Shown one piece after another: positions 2,075-11,814 of a stretch of DNA of 64,000 bases (position 1 is the stretch's first letter; the number at the start of each line of letters is the position of its first letter). Position numbers and translations under genes: made by a program. Source of the DNA: Gemmata palustris (lineage in GTDB: Bacteria; Planctomycetota; Planctomycetia; Gemmatales; Gemmataceae); NCBI RefSeq assembly GCF_017939745.1, contig NZ_JAGKQQ010000002.1, positions 496,001-560,000 on the forward strand, in the 5' to 3' direction. Under the pieces are notes generated by a model. It searched no databases and was not told where the DNA came from. It saw nothing but the letters and a program-made list of their open reading frames with translations.

Positions 2075-2119
2075 CTATTCATTCCCCAACACCGCCGATC
2101 CCGTACCCGCGAAGCTCGG

Positions 2120-3523
2120 TTACTGATTCGCCCCTTGCTGTAAGTGCAGCGCGACGCGGACCGCGGTAGCTTCGGCTTGCTCCACGCAGTCGGCCATTGC
2201 GACGCCGCGATAAGCGTTACCGGTCAGGAACAGGCCGGCGTGCTTCGCGGCCAGCGCGTCGATTCGGGCCACGCGGTCGAGGTGGCCGATGACGTACTGG
2301 GGGATCGCGTTCGGCCACCGCACGATGCGCTGAAACACCGGCTCACCGGTCACGCCCATTGCGCGCCGGATCTCGTCGTGGACGGCCCGCGCCAGGCGCT
2401 CGTCGTCCCACTCTACTTGTTCGGCGCGGTGGACCCCGCCGCACAGTGCGCGCCACAACACGAACCCCTGCGGCGCGCGGTCCGGGAAGATGCTCGAACA
2501 CCACTGCACGCCGAGCACGTCGCGCCGGGTATTTTGTGGCGCGATATAGCCGAACCCGTCGTGTTCACCGGGGCAATGCTCGGCGCGGTAGCCCAGTGCC
2601 ACCACCGCGATGCGGTTGTACGGGATCGCGCCCACTTCATCTGCCAGTGCCGGGTCCAAGTCCGCGAGGATCACGGCCTGTTCGTAGGCCGGGCACGCCA
2701 GTACGACCGCGTCCGCGGACCACGAGTACCCGGTCTGATCGTAGACCTGCCACGGCGCCACGCTCGCGGTCTCGGTGACGGTCTGAACCTCGACCCCGCA
2801 CCGCACGGAATCGCCGAGGGTCTCGCACAGGCCGTCGACGAGCACGCCCAGGCCCTCGCGGAACGACCACATCTTCATCGGGCCGGGCACGGGTTCGCCG
2901 CGCGCCTTCGCGTCGCGCTTCCGCTTCTTCGCGGCGCGCATGAACCCGCGGACCACGCTGCCCGCTTCGCGCTCCATCACGGGCAACCGGGGGAACGCCG
3001 CGGCCACACTGAGCATCGCGGGGTCGCCGCCGTGAATGCCGGTCACGAGCGCGTCGGCGAACACGTCCGCGGCTTCTTTGCCCGCGCGCCGCGTGGCGAA
3101 CTCCTGGACCGATTCTTCCGTGCCCGGGGGCGGGGCTTTTCGCCACGGTTCGGTGAGCAGTTGCCACTTACCGCGGCGCGAGAGAAGGGGCGTGGTGAGC
3201 AACCCGAGGGGGCCGCTCGGGAGCTTGTGGAGCTTGTTCCCGACGAAGACGTAGCGGTTCTTGCGGCTCCCGTCGCTGGCCGCGACGAGCCGGTCCGAGA
3301 GCCCCAAATCGCGCACGAGGTTCGGGATCGCGGGGGTGCGGTCCAGGAACCCGTTCGGCCCGCACTCGACGCGGAACCCGCGGTGGTCTTCCGTGACGAT
3401 GTTCCCGCCGGGCCGGTCACGCGGTTCCAGAACCGTGACCGCCGTACCCGGGGCGAACTGCTTGAGCCGGAAGGCGACCGTTAGCCCGGTCAGCCCCCCG
3501 CCCACGACGATAACGTGCGGCAT
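2120..3523 (-). CDS. hemG: Protoporphyrinogen/coproporphyrinogen III oxidase (FAD)
   Basis: 467 residues. The N-terminus VIVVGGGLTGLTVAFRLKQ is the FAD-binding Rossmann dinucleotide fold, followed by LEPRDRPGGNIVTE and GFRVECGPNGFLDRTP, typical of HemY-type protoporphyrinogen IX oxidases. The C-terminal GLFLTGNAYRGVAMADCVEQ is the second FAD-contact motif. It catalyses oxygen-dependent six-electron oxidation of (copro)porphyrinogen in haem synthesis, at the membrane or in the cytosol. Length is normal for the family. It begins 3 bp after the stop of the small secreted-protein gene upstream, so the two are probably co-transcribed. Some databases call this family hemY or cgoX; which porphyrinogen is used cannot be told from the sequence. 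Confidence 0.93.
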   Translation of the reverse strand: MPHVIVVGGGLTGLTVAFRLKQFAPGTAVTVLEPRDRPGGNIVTEDHRGFRVECGPNGFLDRTPAIPNLVRDLGLSDRLVAASDGSRKNRYVFVGNKLHKLPSGPLGLLTTPLLSRRGKWQLLTEPWRKAPPPGTEESVQEFATRRAGKEAADVFADALVTGIHGGDPAMLSVAAAFPRLPVMEREAGSVVRGFMRAAKKRKRDAKARGEPVPGPMKMWSFREGLGVLVDGLCETLGDSVRCGVEVQTVTETASVAPWQVYDQTGYSWSADAVVLACPAYEQAVILADLDPALADEVGAIPYNRIAVVALGYRAEHCPGEHDGFGYIAPQNTRRDVLGVQWCSSIFPDRAPQGFVLWRALCGGVHRAEQVEWDDERLARAVHDEIRRAMGVTGEPVFQRIVRWPNAIPQYVIGHLDRVARIDALAAKHAGLFLTGNAYRGVAMADCVEQAEATAVRVALHLQQGANQ

Positions 3524-3526
3524 GAG

Positions 3527-3997
3527 TTATTTCGGTACCCCGACGACCTTCGCTCGGCCGTCCTTGATGCGGACCAGAAGTCCCCCGCGTTCCTTCCCGT
3601 CCCGCACGATCATCACGACGTAACCGGTTTTACCGAGAACCGTTTCAATGTCCGCGAGTTGTTTTTCCCGCTCCTTGTTCAAGCCCCGGTCTTCAAATTT
3701 CTTGCGGAACGCGGTGCTATCGAGGAGCGTGCCGAGTTCGGTCGGCACCCTCTCCGGCTCCACTTTTTCCAGGAACGGCTTGAGGGCGTCCTTCAGTTCT
3801 TCGGACTTGGTGATCGGTTCGGCTTTCCCGTCGAGGATGAACGGCACGTCTACCGTCTTGAGCACGGCGTCGAGATCCTTGGCTTTGACGGCTTTCAGGA
3901 AAGCGAGGGACACGTCCTTCACGTTCTCTTCGTCCTTGTCGGCGGCCGATACCGGCACGGCGAGCGCGACCAGCAGAGCAACGGCGAGCGGGCGCAT
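3527..3997 (-). CDS. Small secreted protein of unknown function upstream of hemG
   Basis: 156 residues from ATG 3997, which has a strong GGGAGG ribosome site just upstream; a longer open frame to 4144 adds a Cys-rich tail that lacks protein character. Residues 1-19 (MRPLAVALLVALAVPVSAAD) form a Sec signal peptide. The mature part is charged and alpha/beta in pattern (AFLKAVKAKDLDAVLKTVDV, then VVMIVRDGKERGGLLVRIKD), resembling the NTF2/SnoaL-like DUF4878-type secreted domains. I do not recognise a specific family. It ends 3 bp before hemG and is probably in one transcript with it, but no functional link to haem synthesis is visible. Confidence 0.8.
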   Translation of the reverse strand: MRPLAVALLVALAVPVSAADKDEENVKDVSLAFLKAVKAKDLDAVLKTVDVPFILDGKAEPITKSEELKDALKPFLEKVEPERVPTELGTLLDSTAFRKKFEDRGLNKEREKQLADIETVLGKTGYVVMIVRDGKERGGLLVRIKDGRAKVVGVPK

Positions 3998-4138
3998 TGG
4001 CGGAACCTCCCGTGGGGCAAAACACCCGCGGTATTGTACCGAACTCCAAGTTGCGAACTTGGAAAGAGTCTCCGGGCACGCGACCGAATTGCGTTCTAAG
4101 CTCAAAACGGACCCTTTTTGGCAACCGGAACCGCAGCC

Positions 4139-5224
4139 ATGCAATTATTTTGCCCCGCCTGCCAAACCGCGTTCGCGGGAACGCAGCGGTGCCCGCGGTG
4201 CGAGGGATTGCTGCTGCTCCCGCACGAAGCGGCCACCGTAGAGTCGCCCCACTTCAAGGCGCCCGCGCCCCCGCCGCCCGAGCCGACGCCGTTCGGCCGG
4301 GTCATTGTGGGCGCGGTGTTCGCGCTGGGGTTGTACCTCGGTTTGCGGAAGCTCGCGATGGGCGCGGTCCTCGCCGCGCACCCGGAACCGGATTCGTGGT
4401 GGACCTCGTTCGAGGGCCTCGCCACCGTGTGCGGCGCGCAGGTCGTGGCGGTCGTGTTCGGGGCCGTGCTCGCCGCGGCCGGTCGGGTCGGCGGGTTCGT
4501 GTTCGGCGCGACCGTCGGCGGGGTGTGCGGCGGGCTGTTCCTCGCGTCCGAACTCGTGGCCGGCGCGCCGTTTCGCGACCTCGTGCTGTACATCCAACCG
4601 CTGGTACTGGTCGCCGTGGGCGGGATCGCGGGGGTGTTCGCTGCGCGCGTGTGGGGCGCAGTGCCCGTGATCGACATGCCGATCCCCCCAGCGCACAAAC
4701 TCAGCTCGTTGTGCTTCACTCCGGACCCGCGCGCGGCGACCGGGCGCCCGACGGCCTGGGGGCGCGTTTTGATCGGTGCGGTGCTGATGGTGATCGCGAT
4801 CGCGGCGTCCGACCAGGTGCGCCAGGGGATGCAGAAGTATTCCGACGGGATGCTGAAGGTCGGGAGCGTGGGACAGGCGCAGTTCATCACCTGGCAGTTC
4901 GCGGTGCTCGGCGTACTGACGGGCGGGGCGATCGCCGGGGCGACCACCGGCGCGGGGCTCCGGCACGGGCTCGTTGCCGGCGTGTTCGGTGCGGTCGGCG
5001 TACTCGGTGCGACGGCCCTGCACGGGGAAGCGCTGAGCCCCGTGAATTACTGGTTGGGACAATTATCGCTCAGCGAACTCGCGCCAACGGACCCCGCCGC
5101 GGTCGGCGCCGCGGTCGGCGGGGTGCTGTTCCTCGCGCTGCTCGGCGGTTGGCTCGGCGGGGCGCTGTTCCAGCCCCTCGCACCCGATTATATGCGCGGG
5201 CGGCTGAAGACGGGAATGTATTGA
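4139..5224 (+). CDS. Zinc-ribbon multi-pass membrane protein
   Basis: 361 residues from ATG 4139 (MQLFCPACQTAFAGTQRCPR). An N-terminal zinc ribbon has two CxxC pairs, CPAC and CPRC, within the first 21 residues. A proline-rich linker (about 45-56) leads to six to eight hydrophobic segments rich in Gly/Ala/Val, from about residue 60 to 345, arranged as two similar halves: each starts with a PFGRVIVGAV- or AWGRVLIGAV-like segment. Such zinc-ribbon membrane proteins are common in planctomycetes and have no assigned role. Function unknown; a duplicated membrane domain is inferred from the repeated segments. Confidence 0.8.
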   Translation: MQLFCPACQTAFAGTQRCPRCEGLLLLPHEAATVESPHFKAPAPPPPEPTPFGRVIVGAVFALGLYLGLRKLAMGAVLAAHPEPDSWWTSFEGLATVCGAQVVAVVFGAVLAAAGRVGGFVFGATVGGVCGGLFLASELVAGAPFRDLVLYIQPLVLVAVGGIAGVFAARVWGAVPVIDMPIPPAHKLSSLCFTPDPRAATGRPTAWGRVLIGAVLMVIAIAASDQVRQGMQKYSDGMLKVGSVGQAQFITWQFAVLGVLTGGAIAGATTGAGLRHGLVAGVFGAVGVLGATALHGEALSPVNYWLGQLSLSELAPTDPAAVGAAVGGVLFLALLGGWLGGALFQPLAPDYMRGRLKTGMY

Positions 5225-5328
5225 AGGGGTTCCGAATACCATGTGCCCGGCGCCCGTTCCTGGGCCGTTCGGACGTCGGGGCTGAACCGATATGTGCCGA
5301 TTGACCGCACGGGAACTCGCCCTCCACC

Positions 5329-5436
5329 GCCGAACACCAAGCTCACCGGCCGCGCACACCGCGCCACGGTCCTGAAGCCATGCAATTTACCCCGGTCTGT
5401 TGCAGCGGCGGGCTCCGGCAGACGCCCTTACCAGGC
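5329..5436 (-). repeat. attC-like site 1 (end of array)
   Basis: The right half is clear: GGTG box, 8-nt spacer AGCTTGGT, core GTTCGGC (5329-5335 on the plus strand as GCCGAAC). The left half is weak: TGCCGGAGCC at about 5408-5417 may be the L'' box, and GCCTGGT overlapping the stop codon of the 5428-5754 gene may be a decayed left core. No gene follows it, so it closes the array. Confidence 0.4.
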
Positions 5437-5754
5437 CTCTTTGCGCGCGGCCCGGACCCGCTGCCAAACCGCGTCCGGCATCCCGCCCTGCCACACCCCA
5501 CCGAGCAAGTGATTGAACCGCGGATCGCTCGCCCCCCGATCCTCCACGCGCCCGATGAAGGCGGCACCGTGCGAGCCGAGGAGCGTTTCCAACGGCCCCG
5601 CCGCGAGCAGGGCCAGATCGTCGGGCGACAGTTCATGTTGGAGAAGCGCGAGGACGGCGCCCCAGGCATGTTCAGGTTGCTCGGTGCATGCCTCGAACAG
5701 GCAGTGGTCGCCCGCGAACCATGCCGCGACCAATTCTTCGACCGCTGGTTCCAT
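5428..5754 (-). CDS. Small DUF6869-like protein, cassette gene
   Basis: 108 residues from ATG 5754, chosen because it lies 8 nt after the cassette core and follows a GAGG ribosome site; the open frame extends to 5811 but that part lies inside the recombination-like site. The sequence (VEELVAAWFAGDH, WGAVLALLQHELSPDDLALL, LLGSHGAAFIGRVEDRGASD, FNHLLGGVWQGGMPDAVW) resembles the short planctomycete and proteobacterial DUF6869 family. Cytoplasmic, alpha-helical, function unknown. Last gene of the cassette array. Confidence 0.75.
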   Translation of the reverse strand: MEPAVEELVAAWFAGDHCLFEACTEQPEHAWGAVLALLQHELSPDDLALLAAGPLETLLGSHGAAFIGRVEDRGASDPRFNHLLGGVWQGGMPDAVWQRVRAARKEAW

Positions 5755-5762
5755 GACGCCTC

Positions 5763-5901
5763 GCCGAGCATACAGCTCACCGGCCCGGCCGCGCAACCCC
5801 GCGCGGCACATTAAGTAGGGAGCGGTGAGAATCAGATCATGCCCCGCCGGTCAGGTGCTGCGCCTGCTCCGGCGCGACACGGGCGGCTCGAACCGTTCAG
5901 T
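5763..5901 (-). repeat. attC-like site between cassettes (site 0)
   Basis: Minus-strand order: left core ACTGAAC (overlapping the TGA stop of the upstream cassette gene), 9-nt spacer GGTTCGAGC, CGCC box, long centre, GGTG box, 8-nt spacer AGCTGTAT, right core GCTCGGC. It is the longest of the sites at 139 bp. Confidence 0.55.
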
Positions 5902-6394
5902 CTTCTCGCCGCCTCAAGAGATCAAGTGCCCTGTTCTTCGCATCAACGACCCTCTGCGACTGGAGATCGGTGTTGCCCTGTAGGTGCTTCTCGTAGCGCT
6001 TCTGCCACTTCCCGGGACCGTACTTCCGGTCCAACATCACGGTTACGTCCGCGTGCCTCAATAGGAGTGCGTAACAACACATCCGCTGGAACATTGAGAT
6101 CGATACGTCGAGGCATTCCTCAACCCACCCCAAGCCATCGAACTTCATGAGCATGAGTTGGACTTCCACCCCGATGTCGATGCCGCGGATCACCAGTTCC
6201 TCGAACTCTTCGGAGCTGTCGCTGACGACAGCGATGCGGTCACCCTGCCAAGTACCGTGCTCGGAAAGGAGAATCGCCAGAGCCCGCGAACCAGGCTCGG
6301 TACCAACCCTATTGAAACGGTTATTCAGGCCGTCGAGGCCACAGCGGAAAAACTGCTCCTTATCGCGGTTGACGTAGAAGTAACTTAAACTCAT
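5897..6394 (-). CDS. Hypothetical protein, cassette gene
   Basis: 165 residues from ATG 6394 (MSLSYFYVNRDKEQFFRCG), which lies 10 nt after the cassette core GTTCGGG; the open frame upstream to 6427 runs through the recombination-like site and is excluded. The protein is soluble, with a central acidic stretch (DSSEEFEELVIRGIDIGVEV) and a basic C-terminus (KNRALDLLRRRED). I do not recognise the family. Base composition is noticeably less GC-rich than the neighbours, fitting horizontal acquisition. Confidence 0.7.
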   Translation of the reverse strand: MSLSYFYVNRDKEQFFRCGLDGLNNRFNRVGTEPGSRALAILLSEHGTWQGDRIAVVSDSSEEFEELVIRGIDIGVEVQLMLMKFDGLGWVEECLDVSISMFQRMCCYALLLRHADVTVMLDRKYGPGKWQKRYEKHLQGNTDLQSQRVVDAKNRALDLLRRRED

Positions 6395-6404
6395 CGGCCT
6401 TATC

Positions 6405-6495
6405 CCCGAACGACACAGATCACCCACACCGCGCCTTGGCGCGGTGGTCAGGGGCGCCTACACGCGGCCGGATCAGGTGCAGCGCTCGGTTTGGC
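6405..6495 (-). repeat. attC-like site between cassettes (site 5)
   Basis: Left core GCCAAAC, 9-nt spacer CGAGCGCTG, box CACCTGATCC, a strong central hairpin ACCGCGCC-AA-GGCGCGGT, GGTG box, 9-nt spacer ATCTGTGTC, right core GTTCGGG. The left half overlaps the last 16 codons of the 6448-6948 gene. Confidence 0.6.
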
Positions 6496-6948
6496 CCCTC
6501 CCGGATGTCCACAATGGGAGCATGTGGTGCCATCCCAACGATAGGCGAATCCGCAGTGGGGACAGCTCCCGACTCGCCCCCACTGCTCACGTGCGGCGGT
6601 CGGGTACTTCAACCAGCCGCAATGCGAGCACTCGGATTCCTCGCCGAAGGTCAATTTGGCCCGGCACCCAGGGCAACGAGGCGCGGGTGGCTGCTGTTCC
6701 TCGACCCGAGGAACCGTGCGGGGATCGGATTCGACACTGAACCAATCCAACGGCGCGCCCGCCAGCACCGCATCAATCAGGGCCAACGCCTTCCACAGCA
6801 CGCTACAACCACGACACCGCACCAACCAGTTCATGCCCGGTCCGCGCCCCCCGCTCATGTGCCCCGGTTCAAAGCGGTCGAAATCCGAGGCCCCGCACCG
6901 CAAGCAGGACTCGGGAGTAAGCTGTCGGAGATGACGCACGTCGATCAA
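6448..6948 (-). CDS. Multi-zinc-ribbon protein, cassette gene
   Basis: 166 residues if translation starts at TTG 6948, which is 18 nt after the cassette core and preceded by GAGGG; a GTG at 6939 is an alternative. It carries successive Cys pairs: CLRC and CRGC (about 15-48), CPGC and CSHC (about 91-110), CPHC and CSHC (about 129-147), making three zinc ribbons. No enzymatic domain is visible. A nucleic-acid or protein-binding role is typical for such ribbons but is only inference here. Confidence 0.75.
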   Translation of the reverse strand: MIDVRHLRQLTPESCLRCGASDFDRFEPGHMSGGRGPGMNWLVRCRGCSVLWKALALIDAVLAGAPLDWFSVESDPRTVPRVEEQQPPAPRCPGCRAKLTFGEESECSHCGWLKYPTAAREQWGRVGSCPHCGFAYRWDGTTCSHCGHPGGAKPSAAPDPAACRRP

Positions 6949-6966
6949 CGAAAGATCCCTCGCGGA

Positions 6967-7053
6967 GCCGAACGACCAAGCTCACCAGCCGCACATACGG
7001 CAACTGGTGCTGAAAAACTACGTGGCTGGGTCCGGTGCAGTACCCGGTTCAGC
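6967..7053 (-). repeat. attC-like site between cassettes (site 2)
   Basis: Left core GCTGAAC, 9-nt spacer CGGGTACTG, box CACCGGACCCAGC, centre with CACCAG/CTGGTG inverted repeat, GGTG box, 9-nt spacer AGCTTGGTC, right core GTTCGGC. The left core begins 6 bp after the stop of the upstream cassette gene, as expected for an attC site. 87 bp. Confidence 0.62.
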
Positions 7054-7059
7054 GGTGGG

Positions 7060-7470
7060 CTATTCACCCCAAAAACCGCGGACGAATGGCGGAAAATTGA
7101 GAGCGTCGGCCGATGCCACTCCGAACGCGCTCATCAACTCCAGGTAGGTCGGTTCCACCGTATCACGACCCGACTCGTCCACCGGGCCAAATGCCCGCCC
7201 AGCCGACGATCCCAGCCCGTACACGCAGTCGATGCGGCCGCCCCAGGTCGAGTAGTCAATGAACAGCCAGTTGGTCGTATCGCCCAGCCCAGCCTCGGCG
7301 AGCAACCGCCGCACCTCGTCTGGACCTGGCTGTTTGCCAGTGTGTCCGGGCAGGCTGATCCCGACACCCGTGAACGGTGCGGATATTTCCCGCCAAACCG
7401 CTCCGATGGGGAGCTTGGCAGGTCGATCGACTCGCGGTTGTGCGAAGAACCCAGTAAACCGATACCCCAC
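7060..7470 (-). CDS. Hypothetical protein, cassette gene
   Basis: 136 residues from GTG 7470, preceded at 7 nt by a strong AAGGAGG ribosome site that itself lies just after the cassette core GTTCGGC; this decides against the longer frame to 7503, which would begin inside the site. The protein contains GVWREISAPF-, DEVRRLLAEAGLGDTTNWLF- and STWGGRIDCVYGLG-type segments and no signal peptide or membrane helix. Family not recognised. Confidence 0.72.
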   Translation of the reverse strand: MGYRFTGFFAQPRVDRPAKLPIGAVWREISAPFTGVGISLPGHTGKQPGPDEVRRLLAEAGLGDTTNWLFIDYSTWGGRIDCVYGLGSSAGRAFGPVDESGRDTVEPTYLELMSAFGVASADALNFPPFVRGFWGE

Positions 7471-7484
7471 CGACGGCCTCCTTC

Positions 7485-7597
7485 GCCGAACGACCACGCT
7501 CACCGGCCGGGCCGGGATCGCAACCGGCTACAGCGATGCGCGGCGAGCAACACCAAACCAATCACGTAGCCGGGTCCGGCGCCGCGGCGGGTTCGGC
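7485..7597 (-). repeat. attC-like site between cassettes (site 3)
   Basis: Left core GCCGAAC and right core GTTCGGC are exact complements. Plan: left core, 9-nt spacer CCGCCGCGG, box CGCCGGACCCGGC, centre, GGTG box, 9-nt spacer AGCGTGGTC, right core. The left box is nearly identical to that of the 6967-7053 site. It overlaps the last 12 codons of the 7562-7861 gene. 113 bp. Confidence 0.62.
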
Positions 7598-7861
7598 CTC
7601 TGCGACCCAGACTTGTGTCCCGACCGGCGCGTCCAACGGCTGCCAGTCCGGTAGCACCAACGCCCAGAACGGCGTCGGGTTGGCATGCACAGGGTTGAGG
7701 CACACGACCGTCGTCCGGCGGGCGCTCTCATCTGGCCGCCGCAGTTCCAGCGTGTCGCCGATGCGCAGCCCGTGATCGAGCTGACCGACGCTCGGGAAGA
7801 GGATCAGCCCGAGCCTCCGCACCGTGAAACTATCGCCCACCGTGAACGCGAAACGCCACAC
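7562..7861 (-). CDS. Small EF-Tu-domain-2-like beta-barrel protein, cassette gene
   Basis: 99 residues from GTG 7861, which follows GGAGGG at 10 nt and lies 21 nt after the cassette core; the frame to 7960 runs back through the site and is rejected. The sequence WRFAFTVGDSFTVRRLGLIL, LRIGDTLELRRPD, ARRTTVVCLNPV and APVGTQVWV resembles short bacterial proteins with a translation-factor beta-barrel fold (EF-Tu domain 2-like), where the family pattern is F-x-V-x-D-x-F and PVGTEVW. Function unknown; likely soluble. Confidence 0.7.
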   Translation of the reverse strand: MWRFAFTVGDSFTVRRLGLILFPSVGQLDHGLRIGDTLELRRPDESARRTTVVCLNPVHANPTPFWALVLPDWQPLDAPVGTQVWVAEAEPAAAPDPAT

Positions 7862-7882
7862 GCCACAGCGCCCTCCGGGACG

Positions 7883-7973
7883 GCCTAACATACGGCTGAC
7901 CGGTCGCGGGAGCCGACTGAACGACAAACGAGCCGGGTAGTTTGCCGCTGTCAGGTTCAACGTCGGGTTCGGC
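7883..7973 (-). repeat. attC-like site with canonical GTTAGGC core (site 4)
   Basis: Left core GCCGAAC, 9-nt spacer CCGACGTTG, box AACCTGAC, centre, GGTC box, 8-nt spacer AGCCGTAT, right core GTTAGGC, which fits the integron consensus GTTRRRY. It lies just after the stop codon of a gene remnant (7982-8101) and just before the 7562-7861 gene. 91 bp. Confidence 0.6.
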
Positions 7974-7981
7974 CGTTGATG

Positions 7982-8101
7982 TTACTCCTTCCTCAACACC
8001 AAGTCCACCACCCAGCACCCGTGCAGGATCAGAACCCACGGCCCGGCGGGCGCCGGGTACCGTGGACCGGTGTCCAAGGTTTGTTTGGCTTGTTTGAGCT
8101 G
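7982..8101 (-). pseudogene. C-terminal remnant of a GCWVVDLVL-family protein
   Basis: A 39-codon frame, open between an in-frame TGA (8102-8104) and TAA (7982-7984), ends PWVLILHGCWVVDLVLRKE. This is the C-terminal signature shared with the genes ending at 19944 and 57283 (HVRGCWVVDLVLG[LK]E). There is no usable start codon and the N-terminal part of the family is absent, so it is a truncated relic at the entry side of the cassette array. Confidence 0.6.
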
Positions 8102-8194
8102 TCAGACGAAATAGAATCGTCATTGGACACAGCGGCCGTTCTTCAGAAGCGGTTGTTGTGCCCCGATCGGGGGCGTTACCAGCACCCTCCGTCG

Positions 8195-8225
8195 CCCACG
8201 AGTGATACCGGGTGTCACTCGTGGG
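8195..8225. terminator. Hairpin, 11-bp perfect stem
   Basis: CCCACGAGTGA and TCACTCGTGGG are separated by 9 nt. No T-run follows on either strand, so it may be a factor-dependent terminator or simply a palindromic repeat. Confidence 0.35.
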
Positions 8226-8271
8226 TAGAAGGCAAAGGAAAAGCCGCAAGCGATTGGGAAATAAGGCATTC

Positions 8272-8314
8272 GCCCTTGTAGCTCAGAGGATTGGGCAGCA
8301 GTTGCTGAAACGGT
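8272..8314 (+). other. tRNA 5'-half-like sequence (probable relic)
   Basis: GCCCTTGTAGCTCAGAGGAT begins like the acceptor stem plus D-arm of a bacterial tRNA and continues TTGGGCAGCAGTT. The expected anticodon stem, T-arm and matching acceptor 3' strand (CAAGGGC) are not found downstream. It is best read as a partial copy left at the edge of the cassette array rather than a functional tRNA. Confidence 0.3.
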
Positions 8315-9996: not shown

Positions 9997-11814
9997 ATGT
10001 CGGCCCGGCTCGCTCTTCTCGCCGCGTTGCTATCAACCGCCACCGCATCGGCCCGGCCCCCGGCCCCTCCGTACTCAGCGCTCAAAGCCGCCGCCGCCAT
10101 CGGTCGGGCCGACCGATTGTGCGACGAGAGCAGGTTCAATAAAGCCATCGAAGAGTGCGACACGGCCGTTCGCCTCGACCCACACAACGCAAAAGCGTTC
10201 CGCTTCCGCGGTTGGGCGCTCGTTCAGAAGGGCGACTGGCTCCGCGCCCTCCCCGATTGCGATCGGGCCATTCAACTCGACCCAACGGCCGCCCCGCCCC
10301 ACTACACCCGTGCCCGAGCATGGGCCGAACTCGGGAAACTCGACAACGCTCTGAGGGACGTGGACGAAGCCCTTCGGTTGGCCCCTAAAGACGCCGTTGC
10401 ACTCCAATTCAAGGGCGCCATTCACGGACGAAAGGGCGAAGTCGATACTGCACTCGAGTACCTGAGTGCGGCGATCAAAACCGAGCCGCGGTACGCGCCG
10501 AGCTACTCCGCGCGCGGCGCGCTCTGGTGTATGAAAAAGGAGTGGCGCAAAGCTATCGCGGACTGTGACGAGGCCATTCGCCTGAACCCGAACGACTCCG
10601 ATGCCTTCTCGAACCGCGGCGGCGCCTGGAGCGAACTGGGCGAAATAGACAAGGCGATTCAGGATCTCAACGAAGCGATGCGCCTCAACCCGCGCCACAC
10701 GGGAGCGGCCTATAACCGCGGACGCATTCGGGAGCAGCAGCACCCGGATCTGGCGCTCACGGACTACACCCAAGCACTCGCGCTCAACCCGAACCAGCCG
10801 GCGGTGCTGTTAAAGCGCGTCTCGCTCTGGTGGGCCAAAAAGGACTGGAAAAACGTCATCAGCGATCTCGACGCGGTGCTCCGGCTCACCTCCGGTCAAA
10901 ACAACCGCTACCGGATGCCCGGGGACCTAATTGCCGCTCCAGAGGGCTTCGTTGCGGGCCAGGTTCCCCCCGAAGCCGAACTGTACCGGACGCGCGGGCA
11001 AGCGCGATTGGAAGCCGGTGATTTGAAGGGCGCGAAGACCGATCTCGAAACGGCCGTCCAACTCGACCCAATGGACACCACAACGCTGGCCGCACGGGCG
11101 CTCGTTCACCTCCGGCTCGGCGACCCGGATTCCGCACTCACGGATTACAACAAAATCCTGCTCATCAACCCGAAAGAGGCCCGCGCGTTCGTCGGGCGGG
11201 CCTCGGTGATGGTTCAAAAACAGCAGTGGGACAAAGTTCTGTCGGAGTGCGACGAGGCCATCAAACTCGACCCGAAAAATGCCGAGGCGTTCGCGCTGCG
11301 TGCGCCGCAGTGGATACTTCGAGGCGACATCGATCGCGCGCTCAAGGATCTCGACGAGGGCGTCAAACTCGATCCGAAAAACGTCTCCATCCTGTCGAAC
11401 CGCGGGTGCGTGCTGCTCAACTTGGGGCGCTGGGAGCAGGCGCTCGCGGATCTCGACGCGGCCCTCGCGCTCAACCCGAGCGAGGGCACCGCCTTACACA
11501 ACCGAATCGTCATTCGGGCGGCGTGCCCCGACGCCAAGTTCCGCGACGTGAACCGAGCGTATGCCGATGCGAAGCAATTGTGCGACATGACCGCGTGGAA
11601 GTCGGGAACCCCGCTGGACCTCCTGGCCTGCGTCTATGCCGAGTCCGGTCAGTTCACCGACGCGGTAAAGCTCCAAAAACGTGCCCTGGAAGACCCGAAC
11701 TTTGCCACCGCGAGCGGGAACCCGGCTCGCGACCGGTTGAAGCTCTACGAGCAGAAGTTGCCGTTCCGCTTGCCCGAAAAGTGGAACCCGCCCGTCACTT
11801 CTCAACCCCGCTGA
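9997..11814 (+). CDS. Secreted TPR-repeat protein
   Basis: 605 residues with a signal peptide (MSARLALLAALLSTATASA). From about residue 25 to 520 the protein is a solenoid of about 12-13 tetratricopeptide repeats with the pattern A-x-x-D-x-D-x-A-[IL]-x-L-[DN]-P, for example EECDTAVRLDPHNAKAFRFR and ALADLDAALALNPSEGTALH. The DLD/DCDEAI[RK]LDP wording in each repeat is typical of planctomycete TPR proteins. No enzyme domain is present, so it is a periplasmic or surface protein-interaction scaffold. Its 3' end overlaps the convergent ubiD gene by 20 bp. Confidence 0.92.
   Translation: MSARLALLAALLSTATASARPPAPPYSALKAAAAIGRADRLCDESRFNKAIEECDTAVRLDPHNAKAFRFRGWALVQKGDWLRALPDCDRAIQLDPTAAPPHYTRARAWAELGKLDNALRDVDEALRLAPKDAVALQFKGAIHGRKGEVDTALEYLSAAIKTEPRYAPSYSARGALWCMKKEWRKAIADCDEAIRLNPNDSDAFSNRGGAWSELGEIDKAIQDLNEAMRLNPRHTGAAYNRGRIREQQHPDLALTDYTQALALNPNQPAVLLKRVSLWWAKKDWKNVISDLDAVLRLTSGQNNRYRMPGDLIAAPEGFVAGQVPPEAELYRTRGQARLEAGDLKGAKTDLETAVQLDPMDTTTLAARALVHLRLGDPDSALTDYNKILLINPKEARAFVGRASVMVQKQQWDKVLSECDEAIKLDPKNAEAFALRAPQWILRGDIDRALKDLDEGVKLDPKNVSILSNRGCVLLNLGRWEQALADLDAALALNPSEGTALHNRIVIRAACPDAKFRDVNRAYADAKQLCDMTAWKSGTPLDLLACVYAESGQFTDAVKLQKRALEDPNFATASGNPARDRLKLYEQKLPFRLPEKWNPPVTSQPR

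What the first reader, a model, noticed from the sequence alone, without database searches (positions are those of the whole stretch)
5329..7973. Integron-type cassette array with unusual 8-9 nt spacers and no integrase nearby
Seen: five unrelated small genes in one orientation, each bounded by sites with the same plan (left core RYYRAAC, 9 nt, CRCC-type box, variable hairpin-rich centre, GGTG-type box, 8-9 nt, right core GTTCGGC). Every gene starts 8-21 nt after a right core and ends at or just before the next left core, the geometry of integron cassettes. Known: attC sites have R and L boxes with about 5-nt spacers and right core GTTRRRY. Inference: a cluster of attC-like sites lacking an integrase (CALIN) of a divergent type, perhaps served by a recombinase with different spacing needs. 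One site (7883) has a fully canonical GTTAGGC.
Basis: partly seen in the sequence, partly recalled or inferred. Interest (0 to 1): 0.88.

Follow-up and report, generated by a model that had tools for sequence, protein, structure and literature searches.

The report
Decaying integron cassettes, integrase lost
Five small genes sit in a decaying row of integron gene cassettes whose recombination sites are of the kind used by the integrase of related bacteria, but no such integrase was found in this genome.

Summary
The five-gene cassette array is real. The host is a Gemmataceae-like planctomycete (inferred).

The "divergent type with unusual spacing" is not supported. With the whole L box counted, including a bulged base, the spacers are 5 and 5-6 nt; intact sister sites fold that way unaided. 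The departure is the core, GTTCGGC instead of GTTRRRY, shared by IntI-bearing Gemmataceae (70 of 78 scanned sites).

The array looks like a relic: 27-59 bits against 58.6-72.4 beside IntI in a sister genome, and five of six sites fold no better than shuffles. Three cassette genes recur singly elsewhere in the genus. In one sister genome the array's flanks lie 2.1 Mb apart.

In passing: that IntI-bearing sister genome holds 347 pattern-matched attC sites in six arrays.

The parts
7883..7973 (-). attC site F (first of the array): left core GCCGAAC, right core GTTAGGC (7889-7883)
   Evidence: R1 27.0 bits, E 1.5e-5
7562..7861 (-). cassette 1 gene, 99 aa, GTG start 21 nt after the right core, stop inside attC E; unknown function
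   Evidence: sequence; no family in NCBIfam or PADLOC at E <= 0.1; homologous cassette in G026
7485..7597 (-). attC site E: GCCGAAC ... GTTCGGC
   Evidence: R1 59.0 bits, E 5.5e-15
7060..7470 (-). cassette 2 gene, 136 aa, AAGGAGG then GTG; unknown function
   Evidence: sequence; no family
6967..7053 (-). attC site D: GCTGAAC ... GTTCGGC
   Evidence: R1 53.2 bits, E 2.9e-13
6448..6948 (-). cassette 3 gene, 166 aa, several CxxC pairs (zinc-ribbon-like), TTG start; stop inside attC C
   Evidence: translation; weak zinc-ribbon match, 17.6 bits against a cut-off of 130; homologue in G009
6405..6495 (-). attC site C: GCCAAAC ... GTTCGGG
   Evidence: R1 28.4 bits, E 6e-6
5897..6394 (-). cassette 4 gene, 165 aa; rare family (15 proteins at E <= 0.001 in 5.8 billion, the window's own included)
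   Evidence: 82% DNA identity in G015 with other neighbours
5763..5873 (-). attC site B, decayed: left core GCCGGAG, right core GCTCGGC (cleavage triplet lost)
   Evidence: R1 31.5 bits, E 7.4e-7; cores
5428..5754 (-). cassette 5 gene, 108 aa, DUF6869
   Evidence: PF21746, 97 bits on the longer ORF 5428-5811
5329..5419 (-). attC site A (last of the array): left core GCCGGAG, right core GTTCGGC
   Evidence: R1 40.2 bits, E 1.9e-9
7976..8025 (-). 3' tail (...WVVDLVLRKE*) of a gene family common in these genomes, directly upstream of attC F; probably a truncated first cassette (inference)
   Evidence: copies in 14 other held loci, in 5 of them (L083, L085, L087, L088, L090) just before an attC-like left arm

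Best explanation
This is a CALIN: a row of five integron gene cassettes (about 400-640 bp each), every one a small gene plus a downstream attC site, all read leftwards. The cassettes were assembled by an ordinary integron integrase of the Gemmataceae type. It would bind the folded bottom strand of attC (here the window's plus strand) and cut between G and TT of the right core G^TTCGGC. The genome has since lost that integrase, or received the cassettes from a genome that had it, and the array is decaying in place.

Shown: the kinship of the sites to sites beside IntI, the anatomy of those relatives, the failure to find IntI here, lower scores and poorer folds than in a sister genome, and the occurrence of single cassette genes elsewhere. 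Inferred: the strand used, the cut point, and that no recombination happens now.
For: Model R1, made from 42 sites in 10 IntI loci of 10 other genomes, finds exactly the six sites.

The attC stem is supported in those 42 sites: 94.0% of cells paired against 81.5% shuffled and 21-45% slid; 111 both-sided changes against 42.2.

Own genome: best TIGR02249 hit 87.6 bits, cut-off 265. A sister IntI as query finds at most 62.7 bits, over residues 240-301 only, the level of a match found in each of the 19 genus genomes.

IntI passes the cut-off in 36 of 95 family genomes. The IntI of G011 aligns with 2a3v over residues 4-312, 285.5 bits.

Cassette 1 recurs in G026, with homology stopping at the upstream right core. 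Cassette 4 recurs in G015, with homology ending 1 nt from the downstream left core.

Decay: window sites 27-59 bits; the 19 minus-strand sites of L052, none of them in the model, 58.6-72.4. Bottom strands of six G011 sites fold with z -2.1 to -3.8, five of them in the attC shape; in the window five of six lie between -0.5 and +1.1.
Against: Some attC sites elsewhere in this genome are well preserved (72.5, 69.8, 66.7 bits), so loss of the integrase may be recent, or an integrase may visit. Site B still folds better than shuffles (z -2.51), though not in the attC shape.

The R box itself shows no both-sided change in the 42 relatives, and the GCT/AGC part rests on one covarying pair (4 sequences) plus the folds. 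One covariation measure, the number of pair types, does not exceed shuffles (27 against 25.4).

The counterpart of the G011 IntI flank in this genome (C1:5.057 Mb) has no R1 match near it, so loss in situ is not demonstrated. The assembly cannot exclude an IntI on a missing plasmid.
Confidence: 0.86

Rival explanations
1. A CALIN that is still in use: an integrase acting in trans, from a mobile element or an occasional visitor, still shuffles the better sites (E, D).
For: Sites D and E score 53-59 bits and other arrays of this genome hold sites up to 72.5 bits. In G011 the one IntI found coexists with five arrays 1.3-6.2 Mb away from it (linear coordinates); listed sites there score 64-85 bits.
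Against: No IntI found in this genome or over the cut-off in the sister genomes G009 and G010. Site B has lost the cleavage triplet, and the bottom strands of D and E fold no better than shuffles.
Confidence: 0.12
2. One reading: a divergent recombination system with 8-9 nt spacers and its own recombinase.
For: The GTTCGGC core departs from GTTRRRY (3 of 6 window sites; 70 of 78 scanned sites in IntI-bearing relatives).
Against: With the whole L box counted the spacers are 5 and 5-6 nt, the same as in a Planctomycetaceae integron with a mostly classical core (13 of 13 sites). The enzyme next to such sites is IntI.
Confidence: 0.02
3. Not cassettes: hairpin repeats scattered between ordinary genes.
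For: Stretches of the sites recur many times in genus genomes.
Against: In the window all six lie on one strand, one gene apart. In G011 the 347 pattern-matched sites are uniform in strand within each of six arrays. Such sites adjoin IntI. Gene homology stops at or near the site borders for cassettes 1 and 4.
Confidence: 0.01

Closest known systems
[quoted passage not shown] IntegronFinder 2.0, PMC9024848, passages read)
   Same: Several collinear attC sites and no intI; proposed there to be degraded integrons, with almost 6 attC sites on average, at least 2 needed.
   Different: Nothing essential; six sites here.
Chromosomal integrons of Planctomycetes (attC covariance model of Ghaly et al. 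2021, PMC8352920, passages read)
   Same: Same phylum (inferred); attC fold with R and L boxes; a taxon model for Planctomycetes was already built there.
   Different: I could not see whether that model includes GTTCGGC sites; integrase missing here.
Integrons with intI in the cassette direction (Treponema, PMC3607928, passages read)
   Same: In 13 of 15 IntI loci of Gemmataceae (L052-L060, L062, L064-L066) the attC sites lie mainly on the strand of intI.
   Different: Other lineage; the window itself has no intI. L061 has one weak site on the other strand and L063 none.
Classical attC (GTTRRRY core, extrahelical bases T-N6-G on the bottom strand; PMC3518468, passages read)
   Same: Two extrahelical bases six nucleotides apart, R box, unpaired spacer, L box, bottom-strand hairpin.
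   Different: Core GTTCGGC, and extrahelical bases T-N6-C instead of T-N6-G; the C is also seen in 8 of 9 scanned sites of two loci with betaproteobacterial labels (L119, L156), so only the core is peculiar.

Membership tests
attC site | R''/R' boxes pairing, with AAC/GTT at the inner end | tested here: met
   AAC and GTT both intact in 4 of 6 sites (F, E, D, C); A and B have lost the AAC, B also the GTT
attC site | Right core GTTRRRY | tested here: not met
   Only site F fits (GTTAGGC); the others are GTTCGGC (3), GTTCGGG or GCTCGGC. 70 of 78 scanned sites in IntI-bearing Gemmataceae loci also have GTTCGGC, so the published consensus looks too narrow for this family
attC site | L boxes with extrahelical bases and spacers of about 5 nt | tested here: met
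   Met in relatives: covariation in 42 sites and unaided folds, attC shape in 5 of 6 G011 sites. The window sites align to that model with mismatches
attC site | Bottom strand folds into a hairpin better than chance | tested here: inconclusive
   Window: 1 of 6 sites better than shuffles, not in attC shape; G011: 6 of 6
CALIN | At least two collinear attC sites without an integrase nearby | tested here: met
   Six sites, no IntI found
complete integron | intI gene and attI site | tested here: not met
   intI not found in the genome; attI not looked for
gene cassette | Unit moves alone, with breakpoints in the core | tested here: inconclusive
   Cassettes 1, 3 and 4 have homologues singly elsewhere in the genus, with borders at or near the core for cassettes 1 and 4; no strain-level comparison was made
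gene cassette | Excision and integration by IntI | not testable with these tools
   needs an assay

The most novel reading that the evidence does not exclude
Gemmataceae run a dispersed chromosomal integron: one IntI, co-oriented with its cassettes and tuned to a GTTCGGC core, serves several distant arrays in trans (347 attC sites in six arrays in G011). Arrays such as the window's are outposts of that system, left behind where the integrase has been lost.
Probability: 0.35. Interest if true: 0.7.

Novelty: new member of a known kind. Interest (0 to 1): 0.42.

Why it matters
The window's array is an ordinary relic in itself. It leads to a group in which 19 of 19 genomes searched in the genus carry matching attC sites while IntI passes its cut-off in 12 of them. 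There the core of most scanned sites (70 of 78) departs from the textbook consensus, and one genome holds more attC sites (347) than the 'up to 300 cassettes' stated in PMC11023631, spread over six arrays. That gives a natural test of how IntI reads the base next to its cut, and of whether one integrase serves distant arrays.

Tried and rejected
A pattern search of the own genome with the right half of the sites gave 11 matches against 6 for the reversed control; only sites D and E matched without mismatch. The covariance model replaced it.

Rfam has no hit in the window at gathering thresholds.

ARAGORN finds no tRNA in the window or in L050 and L051, so the tRNA-like text near 8277-8302 was not pursued.

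A first pattern for G011 sites was badly tuned (92 hits, both strands, 5 in shuffles) and was replaced by the one (347 hits, 0 in shuffles). The covariance model gave 388 rows in 16 of those loci at E <= 1e-4 (300 listed; overlapping loci and second-strand matches counted twice), so 347 is the count I use.

NCBIfam and PADLOC give two and one matches at E <= 0.1 for the five proteins, none near a cut-off or convincing. The flank of the G011 IntI has its counterpart in this genome at C1:5.057 Mb, with no attC match near it.

A literature search for GTTCGGC with integron returned 115 papers, 8 listed; judged by titles these concern mostly class 1 or clinical integrons, and I opened none. 'Integron' with 'Gemmata' gave 12 papers (listing only); none looked on topic and I opened none.
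Full report
WHAT IS THERE. The window lies in a 9.23 Mb genome in three contigs, 99.1% complete. Named records close to the IntI of its relatives include Gemmata sp. and Gemmataceae bacteria (best 80 of 570 kept), so the host is a Gemmataceae-like planctomycete; the genome itself is unnamed. Between a gene ending at 5224 and a kinase gene starting about 8387, five small genes on the minus strand alternate with six sites. Gene starts lie 21, 14, 18, 10 and 8 nt after the right cores. Three genes end 6, 23 and 8 nt before the next left core; two end 36 and 48 nt inside the site.

INDEPENDENT TEST. IntI passes the TIGR02249 cut-off in 36 of 95 genomes of the family. Several loci beside those IntI genes carry the same motif: 5 of 12 with clear matches, and longer stretches. 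From L053 to L066 I extracted 56 sites. I aligned 42 of them, leaving out 14 that were near-duplicates or weaker, and built covariance model R1 without any window sequence. In the window it finds exactly the six sites, all minus, 27 to 59 bits, E 5.5e-15 to 1.5e-5; the next match has E 0.11.

ANATOMY. In the 42 sites the stem is R box (7 pairs), a spacer of 5 nt on the left and 6 nt (alignment columns) on the right, then GCT[G]CACCNG[A]C pairing with its partner across the site, with two bulged bases six positions apart. Cells paired: 94.0% (shuffled 81.5%, slid 21-45%). Both-sided changes: 111 cells (shuffled 42.2) in 11 pairs (shuffled 8.5). The number of further pair types, 27, does not exceed shuffles (25.4). 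The R box shows no both-sided change, so covariation supports the inner helix; in its GCT/AGC part one pair covaries, in 4 sequences. Unaided DNA folds of six G011 sites give z -2.06 to -3.80 against shuffles. Five of the six show the attC shape, with 5-nt unpaired spacers on both sides in four of them and small extra pairing inside the spacer in one (L052:8942); one (L052:8514) folds otherwise. Published attC sites that are easily excised have bottom-strand extrahelical bases T-N6-G (PMC3518468, passages). Here the two are T and C, six apart: on the top strand G in 72 of 78 scanned sites and A in 70 of 78 (11 loci, strand of intI only). A Planctomycetaceae integron (L182) scanned in the same way has the same geometry in 13 of 13 sites, with core GTTAGGC in 9 of 13 and GTTCGGC in 1. 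Of the 78 Gemmataceae sites 50 have that geometry and 25 are one nt shorter on the right. The core GTTCGGC (70 of 78) is thus the only family-typical departure. The scan itself demands bulges six apart, so it cannot show other geometries; in all 97 loci scanned it gave 158 hits against 25 in shuffles.

NO INTEGRASE. The best IntI-family match of the genome has 87.6 bits against a cut-off of 265. The IntI of G011 as query finds only partial matches of at most 69 bits here and in G009, G010, G021 and G025. In the genus 12 of 19 genomes have IntI over the cut-off (G014 and G024 have pieces below it), while 19 of 19 have R1 matches at E <= 1e-8 (at most 150 candidates scored per genome, so counts are lower bounds). 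The G011 enzyme aligns from residue 4 to 312 with 2a3v.

OTHER ARRAYS OF THIS GENOME. R1 gives 20 matches at E <= 1 (150 of 18395 candidates scored): the six here, five at C1:3065183-3068178 (one weak, E 0.09), two at 3618484-3619136, two at 3209989-3211510, two at 7881687-7882695, one at 1727562, and two that I do not count (C2:744485, only 35 nt, E 0.003; C1:2778538, E 0.11).

MOVEMENT. A DNA search of window 2100-8290 in 19 genus genomes, the own one included (15 candidates scored per genome), and local alignments show single cassettes elsewhere. Cassette 1 with its attC in G026 (75% over 417 nt); upstream of the right core the sequences are unrelated. Cassette 4 in G015 (82% over 556 nt), from 1 nt beside the left core of site B to 14 nt past the right core of site C; G015 has no clear attC there (best 14.9 bits, elsewhere in the locus, filters off). 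The cassette 3 gene in G009 (74% over 447 nt), with an attC of 70.5 bits downstream and the gene tail described under 'noticed' between them. Cassette 2 has only a 191-nt, 66% match in G016, not followed up; for cassette 5 none is listed.

SURROUNDINGS. In G009 and G010 the left flank (window 2131-5208, 85%) and the right flank (from 8290, 87%) lie at different places: 2.08 Mb apart in G010, on different contigs in G009. R1 finds no site at E <= 0.01 in the four loci that hold them. The array therefore sits at a rearrangement junction; which lineage rearranged is not known.

DECAY. Window sites score 27-59 bits. The 19 minus-strand sites of L052 beside IntI in G011, none used in the model, score 58.6-72.4. 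The bottom strands of the window sites fold no better than shuffles in five of six cases (z -0.49 to +1.11); site B has z -2.51 but not the attC shape. The top strands of E, D and A, folded as a control, give -0.22, -0.56 and +0.52. Site B has lost the GTT, and A and B the AAC. Other arrays of the genome hold sites up to 72.5 bits, which speaks against very old loss.

VERDICT. A CALIN of the Gemmataceae integron, most likely a relic. Papers: I read passages, not whole texts, of PMC8352920, PMC9024848, PMC8946536, PMC3518468, PMC3607928, PMC9176274, PMC2426708 and PMC11023631. Integrons in Planctomycetes are in print (PMC2426708, PMC8352920). The one search that named Gemmata listed no paper that looked on topic; that library holds open-licence papers only.

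Noticed in passing
G011:C1 (loci L052, L090-L092, L191-L207): A single-contig 8,999,201-bp genome of the same genus with one full-length IntI found (1377435-1378373) holds 347 pattern-matched attC sites (0 in shuffles) in six arrays: 76 at 1.339-1.377 Mb, 9 at 2.67, 49 at 4.38-4.41, 129 at 5.16-5.23, 44 at 5.49-5.51 and 40 at 7.59-7.62 Mb, each array on one strand (only the fetched stretches were counted). PMC11023631 speaks of up to 300 cassettes.
   Followed up: partly
L052-L066: In 13 of 15 IntI loci of Gemmataceae the attC sites lie mainly on the strand of intI, unlike classical integrons (stray off-strand hits in several; L061 one weak site on the other strand, L063 none); L182 (Planctomycetaceae) is divergent.
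   Followed up: partly
window 7976-8025 and copies in 14 held loci other than the window's own: A conserved gene tail (...GCWVVDLVLGKE*) recurs in genus genomes, in some places as the last codons before an attC (L083, L085, L087, L088, L090), in others with no attC seen next to it.
   Followed up: partly
window 5208-8290: The two flanks of the array are 2.08 Mb apart in the sister genome G010, so a large rearrangement has its junction at the array.
   Followed up: partly
window 8277-8302: Text resembling the 5' half of a tRNA (TTGTAGCTCAGAGGATTGGGCAGCAG) upstream of the kinase gene; ARAGORN finds no tRNA.
   Followed up: partly
window 9997-11814: A gene that looks TPR-like by eye (no family search made) beside the kinase gene lies in a stretch with no match in the sister loci L050 and L051.
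   Followed up: no
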